The position numbers and the translations under genes were made by a program. From contig VMSP01000025.1 in the NCBI GenBank assembly GCA_013792135.1, positions 1 through 64,000 on the forward strand: a DNA stretch of 64,000 bases. The letters are read 5' to 3'. Source of the DNA: Desulfocapsa sp. (lineage in GTDB: Bacteria; Desulfobacterota; Desulfobulbia; Desulfobulbales; Desulfocapsaceae). A model generated the notes under the pieces. It saw only the letters and a list, made by a program, of their open reading frames with translations, searched no databases and was not told where the DNA came from. This document shows, in pieces, positions 2,440-60,511 of this stretch; within the stretch, counting starts at the first letter, position 1, and each line of letters begins with the position of its first letter.

Positions 2440-2507
2440 GAGGTGTTGGTTTGCTCAATCACTGGTGGAGCAGTAACACAAAGGTAGTTGGTCTTTGCAA
2501 CCCACTG

Positions 2508-2614
2508 GCCGTTTATTAGCGAATAATCAAAAAGACGATTATTCGCTAATAAACGGCATAAGGAGCAGTAAGCAGAACAGCCGAAACAGCACCCGCTGTT
2601 TCGTAACTGCTCCT
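2508..2614. repeat. Composite palindromic element, copy A (two hairpins)
   Basis: Hairpin I has two perfectly complementary 21-base arms, 2508-2528 and 2537-2557, around an 8-base loop. They begin with GCCGTTTATT and end with AATAAACGGC. The junction ATAAGG leads to hairpin II (2561-2614), with outer arms AGGAGCAGT / ACTGCTCCT and inner arms CGAAACAGC / GCTGTTTCG. It lies between convergent DUF134 and prfC genes and overlaps the last bases of prfC. There is no strong T-run. The layout matches copy B at 9239-9341 in the opposite orientation. Confidence 0.8.
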
Positions 2615-4202
2615 AAATATTCTCCCTCGTCTTATGGAATTCAATGGCTGGCCATTTTTCCATGAAAAAGTTCAGCATCCACTCATTCTGGGCCAGATAG
2701 GTAAGGAATCCCTCCGCATCCCGGGCCAGTGCCGCCTGATTTTTTCTTTCAAATTCCGCCATCTTTTTTGAGTCTGCGCAGGTTACCCAGCGTGCGGCCT
2801 GATAGCTAATCGGTTCATAGACAGCATCTACACCGTACTCATTTTTCAGCCGGGCCATAGTGACTTCAAATTGAAGAACGCCTACCGCTCCCATGATATA
2901 ATCAGCACCGATGAGTGGACGGAATACCTGGACCGCCCCTTCTTCTGCCAACTGAATCAGTCCCTTCTGGAGCTGCTTCATCTTCAGGGGATTCTTTAGT
3001 AAGACCCGGCGAAAGTGTTCAGGTGCGAAGTTGGGAATGCCGGTGAATTTGAGCGGTTCCTTGAGGCTAAAGGTGTCGCCGATCTTGATGGTGCCATGGT
3101 TGTGCAGGCCGATAATGTCTCCAGGCCAGGCCTCTTCCACGTTGGCCCGGTCCTGGGCCATAAAAATGGTGGCATTTCCCAAATTGATGTCTTTGTCCAG
3201 GCGATGATGTCGCACCTTCATACCGCGGGTGAATTTACCGGAGCAGATCCGGAAAAAAGCGATACGATCGCGATGGGCCGGGTTCATGTTGGCCTGAATC
3301 TTGAAAACGAAACCAGAGAAGTCTTCCTCCGTTGGCTCCACATCACGGGTTATAGCAGCTCTTGGGCTGGGAGGAGGGGCCAATTCTACAAAGGCGTCAA
3401 GCAGTTCCTGGACTCCAAAGTTGTTGACGGCGCTGCCAAAGAAGACCGGGGTCTGATTGGCCTTTATAAAGTGGTCATAGTCAAAGGGGTTGGCCGCCCC
3501 GGCCAGGAGCTCAAGGTCTGTGCGCAGTTCGTCGGCCTGATGTGCCCCCACGAGTTGATCAAGGCGCGGATCATCCAGGGATTCGATGGTGATTCCCAGC
3601 TGGCCACGGGATTCTTGGCCCGGGGTGAACAGGTGGAGTTGCTTGCGATAGAGATTGTAGACACCCTTGAAGGTCTTACCCATGCCTATGGGCCAGGACA
3701 TGGGGGCGCATTCGATCTGCAGTTTTTCTTCGATCTCGGCCAGGATGTCGAGGGGCTCCATCCCTTCGCGATCCAGTTTGTTGATGAAGGTGATCAGCGG
3801 CGTGTTGCGCATGCGGCACACCTCCATCAGTTTCTCGGTCTGGGCCTCAACCCCTTTGGCATTGTCGATAACCATGATTGCAGAATCAACGGCGGTGAGC
3901 ACCCGATAGGTATCTTCGGAGAAATCCTGATGGCCGGGGGTGTCGAGCAGATTGATCTCGTAATCCCGATAGGTGAATTTCATCACCGAGGTGGTGACCG
4001 AGATGCCGCGTTCCTGCTCGATGGCCATCCAGTCGCTGGTCGCGCGTCGTTCTATCTTGCGCGACTTGACGGCCCCGGCCAGATTGATGGCGCCGCCAAA
4101 GAGGAGGAGCTTTTCGGTAAGGGTGGTCTTTCCGGCATCCGGATGGCTGATGATGCCGAAGGTTCGCCGTTTGGCTACTTCCTGTTCAAGCTGTTTACTC
4201 AT
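2613..4202 (-). CDS. prfC: Peptide chain release factor 3
   Basis: RF3 is a translational GTPase that recycles release factors 1 and 2 from the ribosome after peptide release. The 529-residue length is normal. GTPase motifs are in order: P-loop SHPDAGKT (residues 19-26), switch [17 protein letters not shown], and NKLDRE for guanine specificity. These are followed by the beta-barrel and the RF3-specific C-terminal domain. It is transcribed alone, about 200 bases downstream of the DUF3047 gene. Its stop overlaps the end of palindromic element A. Confidence 0.96.
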
Positions 4203-6003: not shown

Positions 6004-8061
6004 CTACCATTCAAAGCGGACGCTGTTATCGAGGGCGTCCACCTTGGCTATTTTTACCTGCACCATGGCACCCGGTTCCGGAATCTGGCCGGCGGGGGCC
6101 GGGATATCAATATCCAGCAGGATGTCGGTGAGCAGGAGGAAGATCCGTCTGGGGGTGGCATCAAGGACCAGGGCATTCATGCTGGCCCCTTTCCTGGCCT
6201 CAAGGTATTTGAGGAGCCAGTAGCGGTGGCGCTGTTGTTTGACCGCATTGGCGGAAGCCAGGGTCCGGCTGATGACGGCGGTGAAATCCTTGCACATCTT
6301 TTCATTGAAGCGCAGATCCTCACGTCTGATCAGGGAGTGGAGCTGGTGCTGCATCAGCAGATCAAGGAGTCTTCTGATCGGTGAGGTGATGGTGGTGTAC
6401 TGTCCAACCCCAAGTCCGCTGTGAGCCTTGGCTTCGGTGAGCAGTTCGCCGCGGGAAAGCTGCTTGCGCTGCAGGCTGTTTAGGAAGAGGTCGTTGTCCA
6501 GGCCCTGTACCAGTCGTTTCCGGGGCGGACCCTGGGCCCTGAAGAGTCCGGGCGCCATCCGGTCGGCAACGAATCGTGCCGCCTCGGTATTGGCCAGGAT
6601 CATCATCTCCGATACCAGAGTGCGGGCCGGGGTGTCGGTGTCGCTCAGAGTGACCTGGACAGTGCTATTGCCACTGACTGAAATATTCACATCGGGGAAG
6701 GGGAGGAGGAGGGCACCTGCCGCCACTCGTTTCTCGCGCAGTTTGATACGCAGCATGTTCAAGGTCTGCAGTTCCCAATCGTCTCTTTCGATCAGCCGGT
6801 CGGCTTCTTCATAGGTAAGGCGTCTGGCCACTTTGATGATGGAAGGTTTGATCCGTACCCGCAGTACCTCTGCCTCTGGTGACAACAGAATCATCAGGCT
6901 GATGGTGGCCCGGATCTCGCCCTGGATCAGGCTGCAGATTCCCTGGGAGAGATGGCGGGGCAGCATGGGGATCTGTCCTTCGGGAAAATAGAGGGAGGTG
7001 CCACGGTGCATGGCCTCCTGAAAAAGCGGATCTTCCGGGTTGACATAGTGGGCGACATCAGAGATATGGACGCCCACCAGATAGTTGACAGCCGCAGGGC
7101 AGGAATGTTCCAGTGTCGCGGGCACCATGGACGGTGCAGGAGCGACCTCTTCCGTGATGGTCAGGGCGTCGTCATAGTCCAGGGTCGTGGCGCCATCAAT
7201 GGTCATGGGCTTGAATGCAGTGAGGTCCATCCGGCCCAGATCGCTGAACAGATCAGAGGTTCCCTTTTGCAGGAGCATTTCTGCCTGCTGTCTGGCTGCA
7301 AGGGAGAAGATCGTGGGAATCTCCTGGCGGAGCAGGGGGATGTTCTCATTGGGCTCCCAGATTCCAGCCTTTACCAGAAGATGAAAGGGGGCATGAGGGT
7401 CATGGAGGCCGGCCATTTTCAGCAGCTCCCTGGCCATGGCGGCCTGAGGGGCATCACCTGCAAAAAGGTAGAAGTCCTGGAGTACCGCCAGGCATTGATC
7501 AAGGACGGGTTTGAGGTCGGCGTCGATTTCTTCGTCCTGCATCAGCCTGGAGATGGCCATGGCACCATTGGTCAGCAGGGTATGTTTGCTCTGTTCTTTC
7601 TCGTGCTGGAGGCGGAGCTGTTCGACCTGCTCTCGGGAGTGGGCGTGGATCTCTCCTTCCCGGAACTTGAAATATAATCGGTCGGAGAAGACGCAACGGA
7701 TAAAGGCTGCCACCATGTTGTCATCCGTATCGCTGCCAAAGGTCAGTTCTGCCAGAAATAGTGGTTCAAAGGCTGCCGTTTCCTCGTCCGTTGTCAGTTC
7801 CCAGATCTCCTCAAGATTAATCGTCTCCACCAAAGACTTGCGTTTGTCTGCGGCCTCCTGCAGTTGTTTGAGCATTTCTTCCCGGTCACCAGTTATGGAA
7901 TGGGTGCGTTTAGAGATGTGCAGCACTCGAGAGAGGGGCAGGTTGATCTCGCGACCGGTCTGATTGATCAGCCGCAGCCGTTTTTCCTGGGCCTCGGTGA
8001 CAAAGGCGCAGATAAACTTGCCGCCGTCCAGATATTCGATGATTTTTCCAGCTGTTGTCAT
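6004..8061 (-). CDS. RNase II/RNB-family 3'-5' exoribonuclease
   Basis: This 685-residue hydrolytic exoribonuclease contains the RNB catalytic signature TIDGATTLDYDDAL at residues 287-300, with the metal-binding aspartates. A second conserved block is TSPIRRLLDLLMQHQL, and there is a C-terminal S1-like strand region (GAMVQVKIAKVDA). The N-terminal third differs from E. coli RNase II/R and lacks an obvious cold-shock pair. This is typical of the divergent RNB proteins of anaerobic Proteobacteria and cyanobacteria. It acts in RNA turnover in the cytoplasm. The ATG at 8061 is the plausible start. Divergent from era, with element C in the gap. Confidence 0.9.
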   Translation of the reverse strand: MTTAGKIIEYLDGGKFICAFVTEAQEKRLRLINQTGREINLPLSRVLHISKRTHSITGDREEMLKQLQEAADKRKSLVETINLEEIWELTTDEETAAFEPLFLAELTFGSDTDDNMVAAFIRCVFSDRLYFKFREGEIHAHSREQVEQLRLQHEKEQSKHTLLTNGAMAISRLMQDEEIDADLKPVLDQCLAVLQDFYLFAGDAPQAAMARELLKMAGLHDPHAPFHLLVKAGIWEPNENIPLLRQEIPTIFSLAARQQAEMLLQKGTSDLFSDLGRMDLTAFKPMTIDGATTLDYDDALTITEEVAPAPSMVPATLEHSCPAAVNYLVGVHISDVAHYVNPEDPLFQEAMHRGTSLYFPEGQIPMLPRHLSQGICSLIQGEIRATISLMILLSPEAEVLRVRIKPSIIKVARRLTYEEADRLIERDDWELQTLNMLRIKLREKRVAAGALLLPFPDVNISVSGNSTVQVTLSDTDTPARTLVSEMMILANTEAARFVADRMAPGLFRAQGPPRKRLVQGLDNDLFLNSLQRKQLSRGELLTEAKAHSGLGVGQYTTITSPIRRLLDLLMQHQLHSLIRREDLRFNEKMCKDFTAVISRTLASANAVKQQRHRYWLLKYLEARKGASMNALVLDATPRRIFLLLTDILLDIDIPAPAGQIPEPGAMVQVKIAKVDALDNSVRFEW

Positions 8062-8093
8062 GAGAACGTTGAATAGTGAAAGTGAAAAGTTTA

Positions 8094-8192
8094 GGGGCCG
8101 TTAAGAAATAAATTGACCTTTTATGCAAATTTCTTTTCGGCACTTTATGCCGTTTTTGTCATTCCATTGGCCATGTTATTTTTTACAACGGC
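8094..8192. repeat. Composite palindromic element, copy C
   Basis: Read on the minus strand it shows the same layout as copies A and B. The first imperfect stem is GCCGTTGT ... ACAAAAACGGC (8192 back to 8149). The junction ATAAAG follows, then a second stem with TGCCG / CGGC ends and inner AAGAAAT / ATTTCTT arms (down to 8094). It sits between divergent genes, so it is not acting only as a terminator for convergent transcription. On the plus strand CGGCACTTTATGCCG followed by TTTTT looks like a small terminator hairpin. Confidence 0.55.
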
Positions 8193-8322
8193 TTAATTGT
8201 TCGCCAAAGGTGATAAGCGAATGACGAAGCGAACCATATACTTTATAGTATTGTTTGTTGTTTTGAACACTTTTATTCGCTCTGTGCGCTAACTTTTTTA
8301 TTGATGGGAGAATCAGTTCGTT

Positions 8323-9240
8323 ATGATGGACTTGGATGAGAAACAAATACGTTCCGGGATGGTTGCCATTGTCGGCCCTCCCAATGCCGGCAAGTCAACC
8401 CTGATGAATGCTCTATTGGAGCAGAAAATCTCTATCGTCACCCCCAAGCCCCAGACCACCCGCAACCGGATCCTGGGGATTGTCAATGCTGAGGGGTATC
8501 AGATCGTTCTCCTTGACACCCCTGGTCTGCATAAGGCCCGTGAACCGTTGAATCAGGAGATGGTGCGTATTGCCATGGACAGTCTGCACGGGGTGGATGC
8601 GGTGATCTACATGATTGATGTCTCCCTGCCTCTGCCGGATCGTTTGAAAAAGGAGAAGGGTCAGGAGCTGGCCGGATATATGGAGCAGGTGAGCTGTCCG
8701 GTGATCCTGCTTTTGAACAAGGTCGATCTGCTGAACAAGGAAAAACTGCTGGCCCTGATCCAGGCCTATGCCGAGATCTTCCCTTTTCATGCGATCATTC
8801 CCATCTCCGCTCTCCATGGCGACGGAACGGACCGCTTGCTGGACGAGCTGCTGCAGGTCTTGCCCATCGGGCCGCGCTATTATCCTGAGGATATCCCCAC
8901 TGATGCCACGGAGCGTTTTCTGGTGGCGGAGATTATCAGGGAGAAGGTGTTTCTGCTTACGGGTGAGGAGGTGCCTTATTCCTCGGCGGTGCTCATTGAA
9001 TCGTTCAAGGAAGACCCAGTGAAGGGGCTGATCACAATCCATGCCGCCATCGTGCTGGAGCGGGAGTCGCAGAAGGGGATTGTCATCGGCAAGGGTGGCC
9101 TGAAACTGAAGAGTATCGGTATTGCCGCCCGTAAGGATATAGAAAAACTGCTGGATCAGAAGGTGCTGTTAAAGCTCTGGGTCAAGGTGCGGAAAAACTG
9201 GTCTCAAGACGAAAATTTCTTGAAGGAACTGGGATTTTAG
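8323..9240 (+). CDS. era: GTPase Era
   Basis: Era is an essential GTPase that binds 16S rRNA near its 3' end during 30S assembly. The 305 residues are standard. G1 is GPPNAGKST (about 18-26), switch II is DTPGLHK, G4 is NKVD. The C-terminal KH domain has GKGGLKLKSIG. Two adjacent ATG codons (8323, 8326) make the exact start ambiguous by one residue. The gene is preceded by GGGAGAATC. Element B begins at its stop codon. Confidence 0.96.
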   Translation: MMDLDEKQIRSGMVAIVGPPNAGKSTLMNALLEQKISIVTPKPQTTRNRILGIVNAEGYQIVLLDTPGLHKAREPLNQEMVRIAMDSLHGVDAVIYMIDVSLPLPDRLKKEKGQELAGYMEQVSCPVILLLNKVDLLNKEKLLALIQAYAEIFPFHAIIPISALHGDGTDRLLDELLQVLPIGPRYYPEDIPTDATERFLVAEIIREKVFLLTGEEVPYSSAVLIESFKEDPVKGLITIHAAIVLERESQKGIVIGKGGLKLKSIGIAARKDIEKLLDQKVLLKLWVKVRKNWSQDENFLKELGF

Positions 9241-9341
9241 GTGCCGTTGTTCAAAGAGCAAACTCTTGCTCTTTGAACTTACGGCACCTTATGCCGCTTC
9301 AAGAAAACAGCCAATTTTTTCCGGCTGTTTTCTTGAGCGGC
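9239..9341. repeat. Composite palindromic element, copy B (two hairpins)
   Basis: Starting at the era stop codon, hairpin II runs 9239-9288: ends AGGTGCCGT / ACGGCACCT, inner arms GTTCAAAGAGCAA / TTGCTCTTTGAAC, loop ACTC. The junction CTTAT leads to hairpin I, with arms 9293-9312 and 9323-9341 (GCCGCTTCAAGAAAACAGCC and its near-complement). It is the mirror orientation of copy A and sits between convergent era and the hydrolase remnant. Stem sequences differ from copy A but pairing is kept. Confidence 0.75.
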
Positions 9342-9379
9342 GCCTGCTAGATATCACGCAGGGGCTACAAGCAAGTTCT

Positions 9380-18608: not shown

Positions 18609-18663
18609 CGTCTGTCTCGTTTATATCTCTGCTCAGGGAAAAGAGTTGGGAAAACTGATGAAC

Positions 18664-18713
18664 CGTTAAGGATATGATTTCCTCTAGTTATTCCCTTAAC
18701 GCTCTTTGGGCCG
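18664..18713. repeat. Palindromic intergenic element, degenerate copy F
   Basis: Arms CGTTAAGG (18664-18671) and CCTTAACG (18694-18701) flank 22 bases. They are followed by CTCTTTGGGCCG, so on the minus strand CGGC-CCAAAG-AGCG is read where copies A and B have CGGC-ATAAGG-AGC. Only one hairpin is recognisable. The assignment to the family is tentative. Confidence 0.35.
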
Positions 18714-18716
18714 TTT

Positions 18717-18988
18717 TCACAATTTTAAGGTCAATGTTATTTTTGAAAGACAACTTAAATCTCTCTTTCATATAATGAAGACCACACTTTATGTCAAATT
18801 AAAGGTGCTTTTGGCAGTTGATTCTTACTTTCCCCTTGCAACTTGATACGCAGTTGGTATTTTTATAAGTTTTATATGAAAAGAAGGAGCAGGGGGAGTA
18901 CATTGCAAAAGTCAGTCTGTTTCTTGTTTATAATATCTTAACTTTAATTTGTTCACGAGCCGTGCCTTGCTGAAAAAAGGAGAATACC
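18717..18988 (+). promoter_or_regulatory. Leader region of ileS with a possible -10 box
   Basis: Non-coding AT-rich region between the divergent CooC-like gene and ileS. TATAAT at 18929-18934 is a good -10 candidate. The best -35 match, TTGCAA at 18903-18908, is spaced 20 bases away, longer than ideal. AAAGGAGAA at about 18975 is a clear ribosome-binding site for the ATG at 18989. I see no T-box or riboswitch-like fold. Confidence 0.3.
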
Positions 18989-34007: not shown

Positions 34008-34043
34008 CCGGCATTGTGAACATGAAATGCCGGTTTTTTGTTT
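34008..34043 (+). terminator. Intrinsic terminator after rpiB
   Basis: Stem CCGGCATT / AATGCCGG (34008-34015 and 34026-34033) with a 10-base loop is followed by TTTTTTGTTTT. This is a textbook Rho-independent terminator. Confidence 0.9.
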
Positions 34044-34044
34044 T

Positions 34045-34102
34045 AGGATCTGTTACGAAATAGTTTTTACCTTCTAACTATTTGTTACGCTTCCTTATGC
34101 CG
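34045..34102. repeat. Palindromic intergenic element, copy D (single hairpin)
   Basis: Reads AGGATCTGTTACGAAATAGTT, then AACTATTTGTTACGCTTCCT, then TATGCCG (34045-34102). Reversed, this gives CGGC-ATAAGG-AAGCGTAAC, the same junction as copy A. Stem AAATAGTT / AACTATTT extends with GTTAC / GTTAC sides that pair imperfectly. No partner for the second hairpin is present. It lies directly after the rpiB terminator. Confidence 0.5.
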
Positions 34103-34234
34103 TTTTTACCATCTATAATAATAGTATTTTGTAATAATTATTTTTGTAAGGTCAGTTTTTGAACGAAGGCTTAGTCTGTCCATGAAAAGAAATCTGGTTG
34201 CTTGTCAACTGGAAAAGCAAAAGGTAATTCTGCT

Positions 34235-40495: not shown

Positions 40496-40511
40496 TTCTA
40501 TTTTTTTATAC

Positions 40512-40552
40512 AAAAAAAGCTCTTATTCATTTATGAATAAGAGCTTTTTTTG
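40512..40552. terminator. Bidirectional intrinsic terminator
   Basis: AGCTCTTATTCAT (40518-40530) and ATGAATAAGAGCT (40533-40545) form a perfect stem. It is preceded by an A-run and followed by a T-run, so it can stop transcription of the PxxKW gene on one strand and of the nuo operon on the other. Confidence 0.88.
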
Positions 40553-40610
40553 TCTTTAATTTTAAGAAGATAAGTTGTGACTCTTACGGAAAAGAAAGAG
40601 TTGGTAATCT

Positions 40611-53523: not shown

Positions 53524-53565
53524 AAAAAACCGGTTGCAGATGAGTAATTCTGCAACCGGTTTTTG
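53524..53565. terminator. Bidirectional intrinsic terminator between LysR gene and aminotransferase
   Basis: AAACCGGTTGCAG (53527-53539) and CTGCAACCGGTTT (53550-53562) form a 13-pair stem with a 10-base loop. A-run before and T-run after suit both converging genes. Confidence 0.88.
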
Positions 53566-59576: not shown

Positions 59577-59780
59577 TCAAAAAAATCGTAACAGTGAAGT
59601 ATCGTGACCGGCAGTCGCTCTTCCTCCAAACCTCCAGGGCACTTCCTTTGTGGCGGTCACTCCTGCGCCGTCTTTGGCACCCATGACAGTGGGCCATGCA
59701 CGGCCTGCGTAAGGAGCTGTAACGAAATGGTTGGAAATGTAGTAGTATCAAAACGGCGATGGTTTTTTTGTAACAGCTCC
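59577..59780. repeat. Repeat-like region with palindromic copy E and a coding-like remnant
   Basis: 59711-59780 starts AAGGAGCTGTAACGAAATGG and ends TTTGTAACAGCTCC, matching the AAGGAGC...GTAAC / GTAAC...GCTCC ends of copy A. Left of it, on the minus strand, a start-less frame of about 55 residues reads APYAGRAWPTVMGAKDGAG, then TATKEVPWRFGGRATAGHDT, ending at 59577. This looks protein-like but has no start. The whole piece may be a transposed repeat. Confidence 0.45.
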
Positions 59781-59782
59781 CA

Positions 59783-60511
59783 ATGAGATCAGAGACGGTT
59801 CTTTCCAGACAGGTCAACAGGCGTATTGGCCAAGCCATGCAGACTTATTCCATGCTCAGCCATGGTGATTCTGTACTGGTGGCCGTGTCCGGTGGGGTGG
59901 ATAGTCTGGTGTTGGCCTGGCTGCTGCAGATGTGGTTGCAGAAGGCGCCCATCAGCTACACCCTGCGGGTTGTCCATATTGATATGGGGTTTCGGGGACA
60001 GGGGAAGTCAGGTGCCAATCCGGTTGCAGAAATCCGCGAACAACTTAACCGGTTCGGGATTTCTTTGCTGGTTGAACAGGCCAGGGTGATGGATGAGGCT
60101 GAGCGGAACTGCTTTTTCTGCGCCCGGCAGCGTCGTCATCAGCTGTTTAATCTGGCAAGAGAGTATGGGTGTAACAAGATCGCTTTTGGTCATCATAAGG
60201 ATGATCTCATTGAAACGCTTTTCCTGAACATGCTCTATAGTGGCAATCTTTCAACCATGGTGCCGAAGCAGGACCTTTTTGATGGCAGGCTGTCCCTTAT
60301 TCGCCCTCTGGCCTATATTGAAAAACATGAGGTGCAGAAGATTGCCATAACCCTTGGTCTTGCACCGATTGATAATCTTTGCCCACTGGCAGGGAACACA
60401 CGGCGTGATCAGGTGCGCAAGGTGTTGCAGGCCCTTTATGACCAAGACCCTGATGTCAAGGCTTCGATTTTTGCCTCCATGGCCAATGTACGGGAAGGCT
60501 ACCTGCTATGA
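59783..60511 (+). CDS. TtcA-like PP-loop ATPase (tRNA thiolation type)
   Basis: 242 residues of the tRNA 2-thiocytidine synthase (TtcA) superfamily. PP-loop SGGVDS is at 36-41. C110-x2-C113 (NCFFCARQRRHQ) and a later Cys (DNLCPLAGNTRRDQVRK) match the iron-sulfur ligands of TtcA. GHHKDDLIETLFLNMLYSG is a conserved block. Likely role: sulfur insertion at C32 of tRNAs, though other PP-loop functions exist. The ATG at 59783 lies 2 bases after repeat E with no Shine-Dalgarno sequence; ATG 59834 would cut into the conserved start. Overlaps the next gene by 4 bases. Confidence 0.85.
   Translation: MRSETVLSRQVNRRIGQAMQTYSMLSHGDSVLVAVSGGVDSLVLAWLLQMWLQKAPISYTLRVVHIDMGFRGQGKSGANPVAEIREQLNRFGISLLVEQARVMDEAERNCFFCARQRRHQLFNLAREYGCNKIAFGHHKDDLIETLFLNMLYSGNLSTMVPKQDLFDGRLSLIRPLAYIEKHEVQKIAITLGLAPIDNLCPLAGNTRRDQVRKVLQALYDQDPDVKASIFASMANVREGYLL

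What the first reader, a model, noticed from the sequence alone, without database searches (positions are those of the whole stretch)
2508..2614. A dispersed family of two-hairpin intergenic elements with a conserved junction but changing stems
Seen: copies A (2508-2614), B (9239-9341, inverted) and C (8094-8192, inverted) share the order stem I (GCCG...CGGC), junction ATAAGG or ATAAAG, stem II (AGGNGC or similar). D (34045-34102), E (59711-59780) and F (18664-18713) look partial. Stem sequences differ between copies while both arms still pair, so pairing rather than sequence appears conserved. A and B lie between convergent genes, C and F between divergent genes, D and E between co-directional genes, so they are not just terminators. 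Inference: a REP/MITE-like family, possibly mobilised by a RAYT-type transposase elsewhere, or a structured-RNA class.
Basis: partly seen in the sequence, partly recalled or inferred. Interest (0 to 1): 0.65.

Follow-up and report, generated by a model that had tools for sequence, protein, structure and literature searches.

The report
Two-hairpin mobile element ending in stops
The repeats are copies of a roughly 106-base "hitch-hiking" transposon, common in sulfate-reducing bacteria and their relatives, that carries no gene of its own, was most likely moved by an ISAzo13-type transposase, keeps both its hairpins paired while their letters change, and often sits exactly at the ends of genes.

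Summary
In detail: A, B and C are full members and D, E and F decayed members of a dispersed family of about 106 nt with two hairpins joined by CGGCATAAGGNGC. Stretches taken from this genome hold 88 distinct copies, and all 17 genus genomes examined have the junction. A sequence-plus-structure model finds the family in 66 of 146 genomes of the order. Pairing is conserved while stems change.

It is best explained as a MITE, not a RAYT/REP element or a known RNA class. Identical copies sit in different flanks in one genome, and an orthologous empty site shows insertion at a TAA. No copy was found in 45 loci around tyrosine transposases. The tips match ends of insertion sequences with ISAzo13-family transposases: 17 to 23 of 25 bases in six genomes, 21 of 21 at both ends of one IS. 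The window's own genome has no ISAzo13 gene, and presence of the two is not clearly associated.

Copies overlap stop codons three- to sixfold more often than uniform TA targeting predicts; in the window they form the stops of RF3-like and Era-like genes. G-T and A-C mispairs are equally rare in hairpin II, so conservation looks DNA-level rather than RNA-level. Interesting, but of a known kind.

The parts
2505..2616 (+). Copy A, full element with perfect stem I (stem I arms 2508-2528 and 2537-2557, junction ATA 2558-2560, hairpin II 2561-2614, end TAA 2614-2616)
2613..2615 (-). TAG stop codon of the RF3-like gene 2613-4202 (-), formed by the right end of copy A
9237..9344 (-). Copy B, full element with perfect stem I; the left extension seen in this type reaches about 9353 (GATATCTAGCA on the element strand)
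9238..9240 (+). TAG stop codon of the Era-like gene 8323-9240 (+), formed by the right end of copy B
8091..8195 (-). Copy C, full element of the common type (weak stem I), between the divergent RNase II-like gene 6004-8061 (-) and the Era-like gene
18656..18757 (-). Copy F, decayed
   Evidence: 39.7 bits, E 5.5e-7
34043..34173 (-). Copy D, decayed
   Evidence: 31.5 bits, E 4.7e-5
59695..59783 (+). Copy E, decayed
   Evidence: 33.6 bits, E 1.5e-5

Best explanation
A non-autonomous transposon (MITE) family mobilised in trans by ISAzo13-family DDE transposases. The unit is TAA|GCCG - hairpin I - CGGC-ATA-AGGNGCC - hairpin II - GGCNCC|TAA, about 106 nt with the flanking letters. Its two tips resemble each other and the ends of ISAzo13-family insertion sequences. 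SHOWN: dispersal of identical copies, insertion at a TAA that an orthologue has without the element, shared tips, two covarying hairpins, excess at stop codons. INFERRED: that the ISAzo13 enzyme cuts out or copies the element and pastes it at TAA, duplicating TA or TAA; that the element arose as a tandem pair of minimal IS-end palindromes; that copies survive at stop codons because target TA plus the first base of either end (A on the left, G on the right) recreates TAA or TAG; and that stem pairing is kept at DNA level (hairpin or cruciform use, or template-switch repair of the palindrome) rather than for an RNA.
For: Recent movement: in G039 twelve copies of one 106-nt version are identical, with sharp TAAGCCG...CTCCTAA edges in differing flanks; three pairs of them share flanks on contig ends, leaving about nine sites. 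Empty site: the G048 copy starts at a gene's ..CGTCGATAA stop; orthologue L217 (G159) has ..CGTCGATAA followed by other sequence and no element. ISAzo13 link: in L278 the 21-nt MITE end TTAGGAGCCGTTACGAAATAA lies at both ends, inverted, around an ISAzo13 transposase (PF07592 E 4.8e-80, NF033519 366 bits); this locus was found by scanning for that tip. An independent PF07592 search led to IS right ends that match the MITE end at 20, 19, 18, 17 and 21 of 25 bases in 5 of the 14 positive genomes (G076 at six junctions, G039, G074 at two junctions, G019, a fragment in G071; shuffled means 6.2-6.7). The letters outside the eight G076 and G074 junctions are TTA or TAA, the kind of target seen for the MITE. 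Two Mesorhizobium ISAzo13 copies show the same TAAGG / TTAGG asymmetry. Structure.
Against: The window's genome has no PF07592 match; 8 of 14 ISAzo13-positive genomes have the element against 58 of 132 negative ones, so presence is not clearly associated. In 9 of the 14 positive genomes I saw no end matching that well: G014 and G128 have weaker resemblances (4-5 mismatches in 20), and in G015, G109, G064, G067, G096, G123 and G141 the scan gave nothing convincing, though several of these are fragments. The IS in the most active genome (G039) matches the MITE tip only at 19 of 25 and its left end was not found. In L278 the transposase is frameshifted and the contig is in a MAG labelled Elusimicrobia. 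Duplication length cannot be read off, because the tips repeat the target letters (L278 fits TA; G076 fits TTA or TAA). Orientation relative to TAA is fixed, which is unusual for a DDE element. The aligned ends were picked by eye.
Confidence: 0.78

Rival explanations
1. REP/BIME-type palindromes moved by a RAYT (Y1 tyrosine transposase) through single-stranded hairpins.
For: Hairpin recognition would explain conserved pairing; insertion orientation is fixed relative to TAA; Y1 transposases occur in all 17 genus genomes.
Against: 0 elements in 45 loci around Y1 genes, of 87 places listed; the unit is about 106 nt, not a 20-40 nt REP; the tips match ISAzo13 IS ends.
Confidence: 0.07
2. A structured RNA or mRNA 3'-end element (terminator, RNase barrier) that spreads or is kept because it works in transcripts.
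For: Copies overlap stop codons: own genome 28 of 88 against 5.5% expected. In copies with a perfect stem I, A-C mispairs outnumber G-T (22 to 7 over both hairpins); on the complementary strand, the one read from genes that end at the right end, these would be G-U.
Against: Over 216 elements hairpin II has 71 G-T and 75 A-C mispairs in 3,744 aligned pairs, no wobble preference. Up to eight of the 22 may be one inherited site (columns 7:50). No Rfam match. Mobility already explains the dispersal.
Confidence: 0.12
3. A MITE of another DDE family (for example IS630 or IS5) whose ends look alike by convergence on TA-rich targets.
For: TA/TAA targets are typical of several families (recalled); the L278 protein also matches the IS630 model weakly, 26.7 bits against a cut-off of 100.
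Against: In 19 loci of PF01609 transposases from five genomes no pair of matching ends was found around a gene; there were three weak matches at 5 mismatches, two of which are an element copy (G000:C14:11537-11642) beside a transposase fragment. Other DDE families were not searched. Seven ISAzo13-associated ends match well above shuffles.
Confidence: 0.08

Closest known systems
Bacterial MITEs such as ERIC, RUP, Nezha, NEMIS/Correia elements
   Same: Tens to a few hundred bp, inverted repeats, no gene, TA at the ends, next to genes, thought to be mobilised by transposases that recognise their ends (passages of PMC3733652 and PMC2759123)
   Different: Two consecutive hairpins with a fixed junction, ISAzo13-type tips, fixed orientation relative to TAA, precise overlap with stop codons. 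I did not compare sequences with those families
ISAzo13-family insertion sequences (PF07592, NF033519)
   Same: Terminal sequence resembling GGCCATGTTATT....AC.G.TCC and TA/TAA at the edges
   Different: The MITE has no transposase gene and has a second internal hairpin
GTAG and CGTC REPs (PMC3733652, passages read)
   Same: Palindromic, mostly outside genes, heterogeneous stems
   Different: REPs are 20-40 bp and GTAG REPs are linked to RAYT genes; the elements here are about 106 nt and were not found beside Y1 genes

Membership tests
MITE | Short, multi-copy, no transposase gene | tested here: met
   88 distinct copies of mostly about 106 nt in stretches of the own genome
MITE | Terminal inverted repeats | tested here: met
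   Imperfect. Left and right arms complement each other family-wide: 7.47 even when swapped between copies, against 5.15 for the inner arms; the left tip is shorter than the right tip
MITE | Evidence of transposition (empty site, identical copies in different flanks) | tested here: met
MITE | Target duplication | tested here: inconclusive
   TAA on both sides, but the letters are also part of the conserved tips; 2 or 3 bp
ISAzo13-derived or ISAzo13-mobilised element | Tips shared with insertion sequences that carry an ISAzo13 transposase | tested here: met
   L278 and 5 of 14 PF07592-positive genomes of the order
ISAzo13-derived or ISAzo13-mobilised element | Transposase present in the same genome | tested here: not met
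   0 PF07592 matches in G000; present in 14 of 146 order genomes
ISAzo13-derived or ISAzo13-mobilised element | Movement by the enzyme | not testable with these tools
   needs an experiment
REP / RAYT system | Repeat copies flanking a Y1 transposase gene | tested here: not met
   0 in 45 loci, of 87 places listed
Known structured RNA family | Rfam match at gathering score | tested here: not met
   tRNA only
Integron attC site | Cassette array next to an integron integrase | not tested
   Isolated copies in both orientations make it unlikely; integrase genes were not searched

The most novel reading that the evidence does not exclude
A mobile element whose palindromes are rewritten as whole stems at DNA level: in copies with a perfect stem I, blocks of about 7-11 bp in hairpin II, and single pairs along hairpin I, differ between copies while staying Watson-Crick paired with few wobble intermediates, as expected if hairpin or cruciform DNA is copied arm-from-arm during replication or transposition and must fold to be a substrate. 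In addition the tips are built so that insertion into a stop codon leaves a stop codon, making it a portable gene-end module.
Probability: 0.2. Interest if true: 0.7.

Novelty: new variant of a known kind. Interest (0 to 1): 0.45.

Why it matters
It gives a name and a candidate driver to an abundant intergenic repeat of sulfate-reducing bacteria; full two-hairpin copies also score in MAGs labelled Methylomirabilota, Holophagaceae and Geobacter. It supplies over 200 natural variants for asking how palindromic DNA keeps pairing while its sequence changes, and it suggests a simple way for an element to land at gene ends harmlessly. I found no paper on an ISAzo13-linked MITE or on a MITE of Desulfobulbales in the open-access library searched (listings); other libraries, and ISfinder, were not searched.

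Tried and rejected
RAYT/Y1 link: not supported (45 of 87 places looked at). IS5/IS4-type DDE (PF01609) link: ends scanned in 19 loci; three weak matches at 5 mismatches, no pair around a gene, and two of the three are an element copy. Nested single cruciform (arms 1:4 with 2:3) as the main structure: rejected as the conserved fold; 2:3 pairing is not above swaps, 1:4 is slightly above. IS200/605-like or attC-like recombination sites were considered because of the fixed orientation and stem variability and were not tested further. A copy with an inverted left end at G039:C101:22293-22398 was dropped because its flanks are inverted too, which is an assembly snap-back. Element in plasmids and phages: no match with one copy as blastn query; in viral contigs: none with a 21-nt pattern of which 19 bases are specified. 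Association of element and ISAzo13 gene across genomes: none clear (8 of 14 against 58 of 132).

Rows dropped before counts: from the 97 own-genome rows, nine (four repeats of one copy in two loci, five opposite-strand shadows), leaving 88; a few own-genome matches were not fetched at all. From I used 65 of 96 rows and 84 of 125 rows, leaving out shadows, repeats of one site, and most rows below about 50 bits plus some long or truncated ones up to about 71 bits; one search was not used in any count. Of these 237 rows, 216 had a distinct sequence and a recognisable junction. At least 9 of the 84 named-contig sites are the same sites as in the other-genome set, so the sets must not be summed. 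One search prints 19 stop overlaps for the named contigs; two sites have both ends at a stop (67 of 84 without), so I give 17 of 84 sites (P).

Full report
WHAT IS THERE. Copies A, B and C are real and D, E and F are decayed relatives. The junction pattern CGGCATAAGGNGC is found 77 times with at most one mismatch in the 4.2 Mb genome, 14 times for the reversed control; exact matches are 26 against 0, and all 17 genus genomes examined (own included) have 7 to 86 exact matches. A covariance model R1 built from 26 copies gives 116 matches at E<=0.01 in the genome, some of them opposite-strand shadows; re-searched at E<=1e-4 in the stretches that I fetched it leaves 88 distinct copies. With stricter filters it finds the family in 66 of 146 genomes of the order, 26 of 55 genera.

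ANATOMY. Consensus: TAAGCCG(C/T)TGTAAAAAAATAACATGGCCAT...AAGCGGCATAAGGAGCCGTAACGAAAT...ATGGCCATGTTATTTCGTAACGGCTCCTAA. Hairpin I runs from GCCG to CGGC, hairpin II from AGGNGCC to GGCNCCT; stem II usually has an A-A mismatch (179 A-A mispairs over 216 elements). In 193 of 216 elements stem I scores low, with mainly its foot paired. The other 23 (13 of 87 own-genome elements) have a long perfect stem I, and most of those from the own genome also share a left extension like TA-TCTGCCAGACGCC; A and B belong here, though A lacks a clear extension. Versions of about 50 nt that consist only of the two tips occur in L276, L312, L319 and L336.

PAIRING. Own arms against arms swapped between elements: hairpin I 6.87 against 5.43 (sd 0.06), hairpin II 13.23 against 10.36 (0.11), outer arms 8.02 against 7.47 (0.10), inner arms 5.13 against 5.15 (0.06), n=216. 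In the minority type: 16.22 against 11.30 (0.51) and 17.74 against 10.80 (0.53), n=23. In an alignment of 21 of those, 95.6% of 562 cells pair against 86.1% in shuffles, 19 of 27 pairs changed on both sides against 5.4, and no slid register exceeds 53.4% paired. On the first 26 copies the signal is weaker: cells with two-sided change 33 against 10.8, but pairs with such a change only 6 against 4.3, reached by 64 of 500 shuffles. The shuffle controls do not remove relatedness. Mispairs in hairpin II over 216 elements: 71 G-T and 75 A-C among 3,744 aligned pairs. An RNA read from one strand should tolerate G-U more than A-C, so this speaks for constraint or repair at DNA level. In the minority type the count leans the other way (22 A-C, 7 G-T over both hairpins), which would be G-U in the mRNA of a gene ending at the right end; up to eight of the 22 may be one inherited pair, so this is only a hint.

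MOBILITY. In G039 twelve copies are 106/106 identical; their flanks differ except for three pairs that share flanks on contig ends, so about nine sites; a second version is identical in five copies. That second version is also identical, 106 of 106, in G008, which belongs to another family. The G048 copy begins at the TAA stop of a gene whose orthologue in G159 ends ..CGTCGATAA with no element after it, so GCCG...CCTAA was inserted after a pre-existing TAA. Tandem copies in G008 share one TAA (L127).

WHICH ENZYME. All 17 genus genomes have Y1 transposases, but 45 loci around Y1 genes (of 87 places listed for the genus, G039 and G048) hold no element. Its two reading-frame pieces are ISAzo13 transposase (PF07592 E 4.8e-80 and 6.3e-26; NF033519 366 and 95 bits, the second below the cut-off of 200). 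An independent search for PF07592 in the order (14 of 146 genomes) led to IS ends of the same kind in 5 of the 14: G076 at six junctions, G074 at two, G039, G019, and a fragment in G071 followed by an exact copy of the tip. They match the MITE right end at 20, 18, 19, 17 and 21 of 25 bases, L278 at 23 and 21; shuffled ends average 6.2-6.7, and only for G019 did one of 20,000 shuffles reach the value. G014 and G128 have weaker resemblances and the other seven genomes none that convinced me. Outside the order, two copies of an ISAzo13 element in Mesorhizobium have edges ..CTAAGGAC and GTCCTAAG.., the same asymmetry as TAAGCCG and GGCTCCTAA here; a pair of Rhizobium copies and one Streptomyces copy did not give two clear ends. 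Against the link: the own genome has no such gene, and the element is not clearly commoner in genomes that have one (8 of 14 against 58 of 132).

STOP CODONS. With crude gene calls, the left end forms the TAA stop of an ORF or the right end the TAG stop of a facing ORF in 28 of 88 sites (own), 17 of 64 (other genomes) and 17 of 84 (named contigs), where uniform choice among TA sites in stop codons or between genes predicts 5.5%, 4.4% and 6.5% (binomial P 2e-14, 2e-9, 2e-5; the last two sets overlap in part). In the twelve G039 sites it is 2. In the window A ends the RF3-like gene and B the Era-like gene. Insertion after TA recreates TAA on the left side and TAG on the right, so a stop codon is kept (inferred). 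Selection against insertion in promoters may add to the excess; I cannot separate it from targeting.

SPREAD. Besides Desulfobacterota MAGs and the named strains Desulfobulbus sp. Tol-SR and Desulfoprunum benzoelyticum, full two-hairpin copies score in MAGs labelled Methylomirabilota, Holophagaceae (L282, 75 bits) and Geobacter (L376, 88.8 bits). In MAGs labelled Elusimicrobia I saw only the tips, on the IS of L278 and on another MITE type. Eleven Methylomirabilota loci have 62-68% G+C, against 50-63% in four Desulfobacterota loci measured; that is not proof, and MAG labels may be wrong. No copy was found in plasmids, phages or viral contigs at the sensitivities stated.

LITERATURE. Passages read: PMC3733652, PMC4853749, PMC2759123. 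Search listings only. Nothing in these describes this family or an ISAzo13 MITE.

VERDICT. A MITE family with a probable ISAzo13 driver, new in its two-hairpin build and its gene-end habit, otherwise of a known kind. On rechecking, one count (named contigs, 17 not 19 sites) and the list of IS ends not matching were mended; the main confidence was lowered from 0.80 to 0.78 for the latter.

Noticed in passing
L182 (G039:C54), about 2078-2314 of the locus: A second, longer MITE of about 238 bp with tips TAAGGGCCTGTCAAAAAATAACATG, resembling the same IS ends
   Followed up: partly
L276, L312, L319, L336: Minimal versions of about 50 nt made of the two tips only, as if the middle had been deleted between the repeated CATGGCCAT motifs
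   Followed up: no
L022 and L234 (own genome), loop of hairpin I: A CCCCCTCC...GGAGGGGG palindrome lies in the loop of hairpin I, apparently another repeat nested in this one
   Followed up: no
L283, L320, L322 (MAGs labelled Elusimicrobia): The right tip occurs without the junction; in L320 two tips lie in inverted orientation about 300 nt apart, another MITE of the same tip type
   Followed up: no
L127 (G008:C48), about 1940-2150: Tandem copies sharing one TAA, the first one with a foreign left half
   Followed up: no
L108 and L122, L111 and L112 (G039): Same flank with different element versions, or same right flank with different left flanks: assembly effect or recombination between copies
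   Followed up: no
window 40510-40553 and 53525-53564: Perfect hairpins of 21 and 16 bp without this family's junction; they may be ordinary terminators
   Followed up: no
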